Made by a program: the position numbers and the translations under genes | Part shown: positions 60,594 through 64,000 of the stretch, in pieces | How the letters are laid out: the number at the start of each line of letters is the position of its first letter | Position numbering within the stretch: position 1 is the first letter of the stretch | Assembly: GCF_004118375.1 (NCBI RefSeq) | Contig: NZ_SDHX01000001.1 | Span: 1,863,693-1,927,692 of the forward strand | DNA: 64,000 bases | Direction of reading: 5' to 3' | Source of the DNA: Oleiharenicola lentus | GTDB lineage: Bacteria > Verrucomicrobiota > Verrucomicrobiia > Opitutales > Opitutaceae | The notes under the pieces: model-generated | What the model was told of the DNA's origin: nothing | What the model saw: only the letters and a program-made list of their open reading frames with translations | The model's database searches: none

Positions 60594-60646
60594 AAAAGCA
60601 TTGCCTGAACTCCGCCGCGCACCTTTATCTGGTCGCCTCATTCCGG

Positions 60647-60937
60647 GTGAATCTCAGCAAAATTATCAACGGAGTCTTCGGCGTGCTTTTCGCGGGCATC
60701 ACCCTGTGGGCGGTGACCGCCTTTGTGGGCATGCAGCGCGAGCTGAAGACCCGGCAGGCCGACCTCGCGACGAAGCAGCGCCTGCTGGCCGAGGCCGAGG
60801 CCAAGCTGGCCGCCCAGACGCGCTACCTCGATCGGCTGCGCAACGACCCGGCGCTGGTGGAGCTCCTCATCCGCCAGAAGCTGGGCTACGCCAAGGGCGA
60901 GGAATTTGTCTTCCGCTTTGAAGAAGTGAAACCATGA
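60647..60937 (+). CDS. Septum-formation initiator FtsB/DivIC-like protein
   Basis: A 96-residue protein with GTG start. A single helix (IINGVFGVLFAGITLWAVTA, about 6-26) is followed by a coiled coil (RELKTRQADLATKQRLLAEA) and the short segment LRNDPALVELLIRQKLGYAK typical of FtsB/DivIC after the coiled coil. These proteins bridge FtsL and FtsQ in the divisome. The ATGA overlap with the next gene indicates translational coupling to the nucleotide-sugar enzyme. The GTG is chosen because it places the membrane helix at the N-terminus. Confidence 0.8.
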   Translation: MNLSKIINGVFGVLFAGITLWAVTAFVGMQRELKTRQADLATKQRLLAEAEAKLAAQTRYLDRLRNDPALVELLIRQKLGYAKGEEFVFRFEEVKP

Positions 60938-63900
60938 GCCACGAACAACTGATCAACAACTACCGTGCCGCCGGCCAGGGGCAGGTCTTTGCCTTCTGGG
61001 ATTCGCTCGATGCGCACGAACGCGCCGAACTCGCCGCCCAAGCGGCCGAGGTGGACCTCACCGAGATTGAGCGCCTGAACCGCACGCTCGTGTTCAAGAC
61101 CGGCGGCGGCGGCGCCAACCTTGCCGGCCTGGCCCCGGCGCCGGTCACGCGCCTGCCGGGCAACGGCGGCGATGCCGCGCAGTGGGCCCGGGCCCGCGCG
61201 CTCGGCGAGCAGGCGCTGCGCGCCGGCCGCGTGGCGGCCTTCACGGTCGCGGGCGGGCAGGGGACGCGCCTCGGTTACGACGGCCCCAAGGGCACCTTCG
61301 CCGTCACGCCGCTGAAGCAGAAGTCGCTCTTCCAGGTCTTCGCCGAGAAAATCAAGGCCGCCGGTCTCCGCTACGGGAAGCCGCTGCACTGGTTCATCAT
61401 GACCAGTCACGCCAACCACGCGCAGACCGAGGGTTTCTTCGCCGAGAACAAGTTCTTCGGCCTGGACAAAAACCGCGTGCATTTCTTCCGCCAGGGCCGC
61501 ATGCCGGCCGTCGCTTACGACGGCAAGATCCTGCTCGAGACCCGCGGCGCGCTCGCGCTCAGTCCCGACGGCCACGGTGGTTCGCTGCGCGCGCTCCATC
61601 GCAGCGGCGCGCTCGACCTGATGAAAGCCGAGGGCGTGGACACGCTCAGTTACTTCCAGGTGGACAACCCACTCGTGCGTTGCATCGACGCGGAGTTCAT
61701 CGGCTTCCACCTCGCCGCCGGCTCCGAGATGTCGAGCAAGATGGTGATCAAGGCCTACCCCGAGGAAAAGGTCGGCCACTTCTGCCTGCAGGACGGCAAG
61801 ATCGTCGTCGTCGAATACAGCGACATGCCGATGAGCATGCAGAAGGAGACCAACGCCGACGGTGCGCTGCGCTACGGGGCCGGCAGCATCGCGATCCACG
61901 TCATCGACCGCGAGTTCGCGCGCCGGATGGCCGCGGGCGGGGAGGACGTCGCGCTGCCGTTCCACCGCGCCGACAAGAAGATCGCCACGATCGACGCTGC
62001 CGGCAAAGCCGTGAAGCCCGAGAAGGCCAATGGCGTGAAGTTCGAAATGTTCGTCTTCGACGCGCTGCCCTTTGCGAGGAACTCCATCGTCATCGAGACG
62101 GCGCGCGCCGACGATTTCAGCCCGGTGAAAAATGCCGAGGGCGTGGACTCGCCCAAGACCTGCCGCGAGGACCAGATGCGCCAATGGGCCCGCTGGCTCC
62201 AAGCCGCCGGTGCCGTGGTCGAGACCGATGCCACCGGCCTGCCCAAGGCCACCCTGGAGATCTCGCCGCTTTTTGGTTACGATCCGGAAACCTTCGCCCA
62301 ACGCTGGAACGCCCTCGCCCCCAAGCCCGCCATCGCGTCAGGTCTCTTCCTTCCCATGACCACCACCGACCAGATCGCCGCCGCCGTGAAGAACGGCCAG
62401 TTGCTCAGCACCGCCGCCGATAATCTCAAGGCTTGGCTCGACGCCGGCCTGCCCGCTTGGGCGGAGCAAAGCCTCCACGAACTCATCGCGCGCGGGGAGT
62501 GGAGCGAGCTGAACGACCGTTTTTACCGCTACCTCGAGTTCGGCACCGGCGGCATGCGCGGCCGCACCATCGGCGTGAAGACCGCCGCGGCCGAGACCGG
62601 CGCGCTCTCGGGTCAGGGCTCGCCCGAACACGCCAACGTCGGCAGCAATCTGCTCAACGACTTCACGCTCCTGCGCGCCGTTATCGGTCTGCACCGCTAC
62701 GTCGCGAACTATCTCGCGGGACAGGGCAGCGCGGCCAAGCCCCGCCTCGTGATCGCCCACGACGTGCGGCATTTCTCGCGTCACTTCTGCGAGCTGGCGG
62801 CCTCGACCTGGACCCAACTCGGCGGTGAGGCACTGATCTTCAACGGCCCGCGCTCGACTCCACAGCTGAGCTTTTCAGTCCGTCACTTCAAGGCCCACAC
62901 CGGCGTGGTCATCACGGCGAGCCACAATCCGCCGCACGACAACGGCTTCAAGGCCTACTTCGTGGATGGCGCGCAGGTCACGCCACCGCACGACAAGGGC
63001 ATCGTAAGCGAGGTGGACAAGGTCTCGCTCGCCGAGACCAAGCAGTTCCTCGATAAGAACCTCGCCGGCGTCACCACCCTCGGCAGCGAGGCCGACGACG
63101 CCTATCTCGCCGTCGCGGCGCAGGCGGTGATCGACGCGGACCTGCTCCGCAAGTCGGACCTCAAGGTCGTTTATACGAACATCCACGGTGTCGGTGGCGT
63201 TTCGACCGTACCGGCGCTCATTCATGCCGGCGTGCATGTGACCGAGGTGAAGGAGCAATCGGCCTTCGACGCCCGGTTCCCGACCGTCAAGTCGCCCAAC
63301 CCCGAGAACGCCGAGGCGCTCGCGCTGGGCGTGGCGCTGGCCGACAAGGAGGGCATTGACGTGGTGATGGCCACCGATCCCGACAGCGATCGCGTGGGCG
63401 TGGCCGTGCGCAACAAAGCCGGCAAGATGGAGCTGCTGACCGGCAACCAGGTCGGCGCGCTGCTCGCCGACTACCGCATCGGCAAATACAAGGAGCTCGG
63501 CTGGATTCCAAAGGAGGGCACGCAGGCCGCCTGCCTCGTGAAGACCTTCGTCACGACCCCGCTGCAGGACGCCATCGGCAAGGGCCACGGCGTGAAGGTC
63601 ATCAACACGCTCACCGGCTTCAAGTGGATCGCGGCCAAGATGCGCGGCTACGAGGAGAAGCTGGCCAAAGCCATGGGGCCCGGCTTCAGCTACGACGGCA
63701 CGCCGTTCCGCGAGCGCGCCGCGCTGCTGCAGAAGCACAGCACGTTCTATCTGTTCGGCACCGAGGAAAGCTACGGCTACCTGCCCAACGACTCGCTGCG
63801 CGACAAGGACGGCAACTCCGCCTGCCTGATGTTCGCCGAGGTCTGCGCGTGGGTTAAGTCGCGCGGCCTGACTGTGCCGGAATATCTCGACGAGATCTAC

Positions 63901-64000
63901 CTGCGCTACGGCTTCTTCCTCGAGGGCGTGATCAACATCTACTACGAGGGCGCGAGCGGCGCCGCGAAGATCAAGCGCATCCTCGATACATATCGCGCGA
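60934..64000 (+). CDS. Fused UDP-sugar pyrophosphorylase and phosphoglucomutase, C-terminus cut by window edge
   Basis: One frame runs from the ATG at 60934 to the window edge with 1022 codons and no stop. Residues 1-470 are a UDPGP-family pyrophosphorylase (AGGQGTRLGYDGPKG near 106-120, substrate motif QVDNPL 242-247). Residues 475 onward are a phosphohexomutase: phosphoserine loop TASHNP (Ser663), metal loop DPDSDR (815-820), sugar loop GTEES (942-946). The second part begins MTTTDQIAAAVKNGQLLSTA, as a stand-alone mutase would, but the codons before it (from 62320 to 62355) are uninterrupted. The fusion would turn glucose 6-phosphate into glucose 1-phosphate and then UDP-glucose. UDP-GlcNAc specificity remains possible. 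Confidence 0.88.
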   Translation, partial: MSHEQLINNYRAAGQGQVFAFWDSLDAHERAELAAQAAEVDLTEIERLNRTLVFKTGGGGANLAGLAPAPVTRLPGNGGDAAQWARARALGEQALRAGRVAAFTVAGGQGTRLGYDGPKGTFAVTPLKQKSLFQVFAEKIKAAGLRYGKPLHWFIMTSHANHAQTEGFFAENKFFGLDKNRVHFFRQGRMPAVAYDGKILLETRGALALSPDGHGGSLRALHRSGALDLMKAEGVDTLSYFQVDNPLVRCIDAEFIGFHLAAGSEMSSKMVIKAYPEEKVGHFCLQDGKIVVVEYSDMPMSMQKETNADGALRYGAGSIAIHVIDREFARRMAAGGEDVALPFHRADKKIATIDAAGKAVKPEKANGVKFEMFVFDALPFARNSIVIETARADDFSPVKNAEGVDSPKTCREDQMRQWARWLQAAGAVVETDATGLPKATLEISPLFGYDPETFAQRWNALAPKPAIASGLFLPMTTTDQIAAAVKNGQLLSTAADNLKAWLDAGLPAWAEQSLHELIARGEWSELNDRFYRYLEFGTGGMRGRTIGVKTAAAETGALSGQGSPEHANVGSNLLNDFTLLRAVIGLHRYVANYLAGQGSAAKPRLVIAHDVRHFSRHFCELAASTWTQLGGEALIFNGPRSTPQLSFSVRHFKAHTGVVITASHNPPHDNGFKAYFVDGAQVTPPHDKGIVSEVDKVSLAETKQFLDKNLAGVTTLGSEADDAYLAVAAQAVIDADLLRKSDLKVVYTNIHGVGGVSTVPALIHAGVHVTEVKEQSAFDARFPTVKSPNPENAEALALGVALADKEGIDVVMATDPDSDRVGVAVRNKAGKMELLTGNQVGALLADYRIGKYKELGWIPKEGTQAACLVKTFVTTPLQDAIGKGHGVKVINTLTGFKWIAAKMRGYEEKLAKAMGPGFSYDGTPFRERAALLQKHSTFYLFGTEESYGYLPNDSLRDKDGNSACLMFAEVCAWVKSRGLTVPEYLDEIYLRYGFFLEGVINIYYEGASGAAKIKRILDTYRA

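What the first reader, a model, noticed from the sequence alone, without database searches (positions are those of the whole stretch)
60934..64000. Pyrophosphorylase-phosphoglucomutase fusion encoded by one uninterrupted frame
I read codons from 60934 to 64000 and found no stop. A UDPGP-type pyrophosphorylase (residues 1-470) is joined to a phosphohexomutase (from about 475). Both catalytic cores are complete in motif terms. The junction ASGLFLPMTTTDQ looks like the tail of one enzyme followed by the former start codon of the next, as if a stop codon was lost. Two sequential steps of UDP-sugar supply would then be channelled in one protein, which may feed the exopolysaccharide genes nearby. 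Translation could also begin again at the internal Met at 62356.
Basis: partly seen in the sequence, partly recalled or inferred. Interest (0 to 1): 0.72.

Follow-up and report, generated by a model that had tools for sequence, protein, structure and literature searches.

The report
Recent fusion of two sugar enzymes
In one Verrucomicrobia genome two neighbouring genes for making activated sugar have recently merged into one long gene, while almost all of the relatives examined keep them separate; a similar merger is already published for diatoms and water moulds.

Summary
The frame is real: it starts at 60934, is open to the window's end and stops 305 bases beyond, giving 1,123 residues, 121 kDa. 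Residues 1-474 are a UDPGP-family pyrophosphorylase closest to UDP-N-acetylhexosamine pyrophosphorylases; 475-1123 are a phosphoglucomutase-type mutase. In relatives these are tandem genes: of 116 distinct junctions read, 114 keep a stop; only the window and one metagenome contig are fused. The closest relative found (94%/97% identical halves) has the stop and, most likely, a third gene between them. So the fusion is young and came by deletion of tail, stop and gap, not by point loss. Both halves show low dN/dS against it (0.083, 0.049). The predicted structure shows no disordered linker. No GalU or GlmU passes its cut-off in this genome, so this protein is the best candidate for UDP-glucose supply, perhaps UDP-GlcNAc too. 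The mutase's pyrimidine-rich leader survives, so a free mutase may also be made. A UGP/PGM fusion is published for a diatom and Phytophthora. Known in kind; modest interest. Expression, activity and substrates are untested.

The parts
60934..62355 (+). N-terminal half, residues 1-474: UDPGP-family (UAP/AGX-like) uridylyltransferase
   Evidence: PF01704 residues 98-402, 124.9 bits; best solved relatives UDP-N-acetylhexosamine pyrophosphorylases, E about 1e-78
61252..61275 (+). GGQGTRLG, residues 107-114, nucleotide-binding loop (name recalled)
   Evidence: position; aligned with AGX1
61564..61581 (+). PDGHGG, residues 211-216; AGX1 reads PDGNGG here
62335..62355 (+). Junction; the relatives have a stop and gap here. 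Its last 13 bases (62343-62355) are all pyrimidine, like the leaders of separate mutase genes
62356..64000 (+). C-terminal half, residues 475 onwards (continues 305 bases past the window including the stop): phosphoglucomutase-type mutase; first codon is the former start codon
   Evidence: PF02878, PF02879, PF02880 over cut-off; whole ORF in L002
62914..62952 (+). TASHNPPHDNGFK, residues 661-673, phospho-serine loop (name recalled)
63376..63393 (+). DPDSDR, residues 815-820, metal loop (name recalled)
63757..63777 (+). GTEESYG, residues 942-948, sugar-binding loop of the glucose type (recalled)
60641..60937 (+). DivIC-like gene just upstream (start position approximate); its stop overlaps the fusion's ATG
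   Evidence: PF04977 29.7 bits against cut-off 28.9; frame; similar hit upstream in 57 of 64 loci

Best explanation
A recent natural gene fusion in one Opitutaceae-type species. An old tandem pair, pyrophosphorylase then phosphoglucomutase, was joined when a deletion removed the first gene's last residues, its stop and the gap and left the two frames in phase. The product is most likely one 121-kDa protein whose C-terminal half converts glucose-6-phosphate to glucose-1-phosphate and whose N-terminal half joins that to UTP to give UDP-glucose. Shown: the open frame, the two families with the recalled catalytic motifs intact, separate genes in relatives, the difference at the junction from the closest relative, low dN/dS. 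Inferred: that the fused protein is made, works at both sites and uses glucose phosphates. Channelling is unproven; equal production of two enzymes would be enough to explain why the fusion is tolerated.
For: Frame and domains. 114 of 116 distinct junctions have a stop. Closest relative JAUPWC01 keeps GLYLE-stop; its two contigs share a 50-base end that places a GxxExxY gene between the halves. dN/dS 0.083 and 0.049 against it; changes placed on the window branch 30.5 silent to 8.5 replacing and 37 to 5. All seven motifs checked are intact. AlphaFold2: mean pLDDT 92.4, nothing under 50, 84-88 at the junction. A second fusion, L093, lies elsewhere in the tree beside an unfused relative, so fusion is possible more than once. 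The only other mutase-family protein found in the genome is GlmM, and no GalU passes its cut-off.
Against: Seen in one genome of its species; the nearest 19 readable congeners are unfused. dN/dS cannot separate time before from time after the fusion. pTM is 0.72, so the halves' relative placement is open. The first half is closest to UDP-GlcNAc-type enzymes and has no NCBIfam match at E up to 0.001 (window part). The mutase is far below the phosphoglucomutase equivalog cut-offs. Two own-genome nucleotidyltransferases (L007, L010) are unresolved and could make UDP-sugars.
Confidence: 0.6

Rival explanations
1. The locus makes two products, the fusion and a free mutase from internal initiation at Met475, because the mutase's old leader survived the deletion. 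This is compatible with the fusion being real.
For: Separate mutase genes rarely have a Shine-Dalgarno-like word (3 of 113 with an ATG found). Their 13-base leaders are pyrimidine-rich (mean 0.70, n = 95, against 0.48 in 1,368 coding samples), and the window keeps an all-pyrimidine 13-mer, seen in 1 of 95 leaders and 0 of 1,368 samples.
Against: That such leaders drive initiation is assumed, not shown; elongating ribosomes from upstream may mask the site; pyrosequence richness may only reflect non-coding composition.
Confidence: 0.3
2. The two halves are not consecutive steps: the N-terminal half makes UDP-GlcNAc (or both UDP-sugars), and the fusion only couples their amounts.
For: Closest solved relatives are UDP-GlcNAc/GalNAc enzymes. 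No GlmU over cut-off in this genome or in 87 of 87 Verrucomicrobiota sampled, while 9 of 14 controls pass, so some other enzyme must make UDP-GlcNAc.
Against: GNGG and AGN of AGX1 read GHGG and AGS here; the asparagines are sugar contacts as I recall. Its constant partner is a mutase with the glucose-type loop GTEES (recalled), and no GalU passes its cut-off in 35 of 35 genomes of the order.
Confidence: 0.25
3. Sequencing or assembly error at the junction; the species has two genes like its relatives.
For: 19 of 20 other congeners show the stop and the twentieth could not be read; reads and a second genome of the species are not held.
Against: A stretch including tail, stop and gap is missing and the frame is kept, unlike a single-base error. 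The assembly has 2 contigs, 100% estimated completeness, 1.51% contamination. Both halves are intact. A second fusion exists (L093), though on a short metagenome contig.
Confidence: 0.07

Closest known systems
UGP/PGM fusion protein of stramenopiles (Phaeodactylum 50444 / UGP1; Thalassiosira; Phytophthora)
   Same: Pyrophosphorylase and phosphoglucomutase domains in one chain, two subsequent reactions; Phaeodactylum UGP1 gives a 115.4-kDa tagged band and is cytosolic (passages of PMC2173943, PMC10356853, PMC8541152).
   Different: Eukaryotic and described as a lasting feature of several genomes; here bacterial, young, in 2 of 116 pairs. Sequence relation of the halves was not tested: no stramenopile sequences are held.
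Eukaryotic UDP-N-acetylhexosamine pyrophosphorylase (UAP1, AGX1)
   Same: N-terminal half aligns over residues 11-438 at E about 1e-78.
   Different: GHGG for GNGG and AGS for AGN; fused to a mutase; substrate untested.
Separate tandem pyrophosphorylase and mutase genes of the same order
   Same: Same two proteins in the same order and strand in the 114 unfused junctions.
   Different: A stop, and mostly a short gap, between them.

Membership tests
UGP/PGM bifunctional fusion | UDPGP-family domain and PGM domains in one uninterrupted chain | tested here: met
UGP/PGM bifunctional fusion | Both activities, glucose-6-phosphate to UDP-glucose | not testable with these tools
   motifs intact; no assay
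UGP/PGM bifunctional fusion | Common descent with the stramenopile fusion | not tested
   no stramenopile sequence held; unfused close relatives argue for independent origin
UDPGP family (PF01704) | Score above curated cut-off | tested here: met
   124.9 bits against 22
UAP/AGX UDP-HexNAc pyrophosphorylase | Sequence closest to this subfamily among solved structures | tested here: met
   1e-78 against 3.9e-12 for the best UDP-glucose pyrophosphorylase
UAP/AGX UDP-HexNAc pyrophosphorylase | GlcNAc-contacting residues (recalled: Asn223, Asn327 of AGX1) | tested here: inconclusive
   aligned residues are H and S; effect on substrate unknown
Phosphohexomutase superfamily | PGM_PMM domains I-III above curated cut-offs | tested here: met
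   97.4, 77.9 and 51.8 bits
Phosphohexomutase superfamily | C-terminal domain IV | tested here: inconclusive
   no Pfam domain IV match at E up to 0.001, but RGSGTEPK is present at residue 1071
NCBIfam phosphoglucomutase equivalogs (TIGR01132, NF005737) | Score above curated cut-off | tested here: not met
   36.6 and 23.2 bits against 778.05 and 378 (window part of the protein): not that subfamily; 'phosphoglucomutase-type' rests on motif and context

The most novel reading that the evidence does not exclude
In a phylum where none of 87 genomes tested has a GlmU over the curated cut-off, the UAP-type enzyme is the missing entry to UDP-GlcNAc as well as to UDP-glucose. In this species that dual-specific enzyme has been welded to the phosphoglucomutase, so one young fusion protein sets the supply of both cell-wall and polysaccharide precursors, caught soon after the deletion that made it.
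Probability: 0.15. Interest if true: 0.6.

Novelty: new member of a known kind. Interest (0 to 1): 0.33.

Why it matters
It is a clear case of a bacterial gene pair turning into one bifunctional enzyme, with unfused relatives as natural controls, so the gain or cost of fusion can be measured. It parallels the fusion known in diatoms and Phytophthora. It also points at a wider gap: how Verrucomicrobiota make UDP-GlcNAc without a recognisable GlmU; the UAP-type enzyme is a testable answer.

Tried and rejected
Rejected: many fusions in the family. The column open_frame_aa exceeded 1,100 for other genomes (for example G154, G349, G126, G091, G049). I fetched 20 stretches, such cases and near relatives; 19 show a stop between the halves and one, G146 (L162), gave no first-half match there and stays unresolved. 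The column evidently reads through stops.

Rejected: point loss of the stop. The deletion's exact ends are ambiguous: the window's GGTCTCTTC matches the relative on both sides of a TCTC repeat, so a short slip plus other changes and one larger deletion both fit. Whether the third gene was present before the split is also open.

Rejected: common origin of the two fusions. L093 pairs with unfused L086 and the window with unfused JAUPWC01, both at 100 (SH-aLRT, quick method). L093 is a 3,054-base contig covering residues 88 to about 1100 only.

Gave no answer: GlmU and GalU tests name no replacement enzyme. Against a clean absence: one Verrucomicrobiota genome scores 197.9 bits with a GlmU-like N-terminal domain, and three genomes of the order score 278-286 bits for GalU against 326.8. 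Paper searches listed no bacterial fusion of this kind; the library is partial and I read only passages of eight papers: PMC2173943, PMC10356853, PMC6329318, PMC5814848, PMC8541152, PMC8934634, PMC7725333 and listings of the rest; that is seven papers with passages read, no whole text. PMC7725333 says GlmU is absent in Chlamydia; PMC5814848 calls UDP-GlcNAc generation problematic in some species, Akkermansia among them.

Limits of counts: the 116 junctions are the distinct ones among 200 loci with both halves on one strand and the junction held, of 226 loci then held; loci with one half were left out, and loci were taken by similarity or suspicion, not at random. L001 stands for the window. 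Printed rows are capped lists. In the repeat test, 12 of 31 GxxExxY loci were dropped because my motif missed the gene; an earlier looser run gave 6 of 16 at score 16 or more against 0 of 61.

Full report
What is there. The frame opened at 60934 has no stop up to the window's end. In the genome stretch L002 it ends 305 bases beyond, giving 1,123 residues and 121.4 kDa. Pfam finds UDPGP (98-402) and PGM_PMM domains I, II and III (586-989), each above its cut-off, and no domain IV. Solved relatives put the first half with UDP-N-acetylhexosamine pyrophosphorylases (8qh2, AGX1 1jv1; E about 1e-78); UDP-glucose pyrophosphorylases come far behind (best 3.9e-12). The second half is a diverged member of the phosphohexomutase superfamily, far below the NCBIfam phosphoglucomutase cut-offs. 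It holds TASHNPPHDNGFK, DPDSDR, GTEESYG and, beyond the window, RGSGTEPK, which I recall as the phospho-serine, metal, glucose-type sugar and phosphate loops.

How relatives look. Searches of 177 genomes of the order, 200 of the family, 387 of the phylum and 21 of the genus (overlapping) found matches in 175, 200, 386 and 21. In the rows printed (three of the four lists are cut) only the window's genome gave one match over both halves without a stop. I then read the DNA at 200 loci with both halves on one strand, 116 distinct. Two are fused, the window and L093. The other 114 have a stop; 78 of them have 60 bases or fewer to the mutase start (two overlap), and 51 of those 78 are in the same frame. 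In the genus, 19 of the 20 other genomes show the stop; in G337 the first half was not found. Among the 114, 47 end in GLYL plus one of E, S, A, D or T.

How it arose. The closest relative found, MAG JAUPWC01 (contigs L117 and L109, which match G694's contigs in length), is 94% and 97% identical over the two halves. Its first gene ends ASGLYLE-TAG, and the mutase gene starts at an ATG. The two contigs share a 50-base end, so a GxxExxY gene most likely lies between them. The window instead reads ASGLFLP-MTTTDQ, with tail, stop and gap gone. That is a deletion, though its ends are not fixed by the data and the third gene may have entered the relative after the split. L093 shows a second case: it is fused through 20 residues where the window has 6, while its close relative L086 keeps two in-frame stops. 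In a tree of 110 rows each fused row sits with its unfused relative at 100 (quick method).

Is it a working gene? Against JAUPWC01, dN/dS is 0.083 for the first half and 0.049 for the second; changes that outgroups place on the window's branch are 30.5 silent to 8.5 replacing, and 37 to 5. The seven motifs checked are intact in both. Neither half has decayed; time before and after the fusion cannot be told apart. AlphaFold2 on a 50-row alignment gives mean pLDDT 92.4, nothing below 50, 84-88 at the junction; residues 471-473 form a strand and the mutase's first helix begins at 477. The pTM of 0.72 leaves the placement of the halves open.

What it does. The genome search found one UDPGP-family protein and two mutase-family proteins, the other being GlmM over its cut-off. 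Of six PF00483 nucleotidyltransferases, RmlA, GlgC and glucose-1-phosphate cytidylyltransferase pass their cut-offs, one resembles mannose-1-phosphate guanylyltransferase below its cut-off (284.7 against 372.95 bits), and two (L007, L010) are unresolved; none passes as GalU. GalU passes in 0 of 35 genomes of the order, although three score 278-286 bits against 326.8, and only 5 of 14 controls pass. So the fusion is the best candidate route from glucose-6-phosphate to UDP-glucose. GlmU does not pass here (best 45 bits against 367) or in any of 87 Verrucomicrobiota (best 198 bits), while 9 of 14 controls pass. A role in UDP-GlcNAc supply is therefore possible. Against it, GNGG and AGN of AGX1 read GHGG and AGS here; I recall the asparagines as sugar contacts.

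Translation. Separate mutase genes rarely have a Shine-Dalgarno-like word (3 of 113; 2 further rows without an ATG). Their 13-base leaders are pyrimidine-rich (mean 0.70, n = 95; coding samples 0.48, n = 1,368). The window keeps an all-pyrimidine 13-mer before Met475, so a free mutase may be made beside the fusion.

Neighbourhood. The fusion's ATG overlaps the stop of a DivIC-like gene. A DivIC hit lies upstream in 57 of 64 loci with at least 1 kb there (two of the 57 over 500 bases away); the AAA protein matches in 33 of 47 and the sugar transferase in 16 of 47 loci with at least 4.9 kb (similarity hits, orthology not tested). The setting looks like housekeeping; a link to exopolysaccharide is neither shown nor excluded.

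Known or new. A UGP/PGM fusion was reported for Phaeodactylum and for two Phytophthora genomes (PMC2173943, passages) and for Thalassiosira (PMC8541152, passages). Phaeodactylum UGP1 has both domain types, is cytosolic and gave a 115.4-kDa tagged band (PMC10356853, passages). Paper searches listed no bacterial case; the library is partial. I file this as a new member of a known kind, most likely of independent origin.

Noticed in passing
L212:1438-1886 (own genome C1, about 17 kb before the window); L117 end with L109 start; L176; L235-L264: GxxExxY genes (PF13366, TIGR04256) are often flanked by inverted repeats built of units like ACACAGAGG; the own-genome copy has perfect 30-base arms. Arms score 14 or more in 10 of 19 loci scored (12 of 31 dropped) against 0 of 77 shifted control windows. 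The gene is over cut-off in 52 of 61 genomes of the family, and sits between the two genes of this report in G208 and most likely in JAUPWC01. It looks like a small mobile cassette; a search for GxxExxY listed two papers, neither on this (one passage read).
   Followed up: partly
genome-wide: No GlmU over the curated cut-off in this genome or in any of 87 Verrucomicrobiota sampled, while 9 of 14 control genomes pass; best sample score 198 bits.
   Followed up: partly
L145, L148, L166, between the two genes: The gap holds inverted-repeat stretches of the same ACACGGAA style with no evident gene, by eye; possibly remnants of the cassette.
   Followed up: no
L093 (JAKPQE010000015.1): A contig in a bin titled Pseudomonadota carries a fused pair whose nearest relative in the tree is a Verrucomicrobia MAG (L086); probably a binning error.
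   Followed up: no
L002:10047-11009, minus strand, just downstream of the fusion: The next gene looks NagA-like by eye (recalled), yet Pfam gave no match at E up to 0.001, and nothing similar lies downstream in 0 of 59 relatives' loci with 3 kb there.
   Followed up: no
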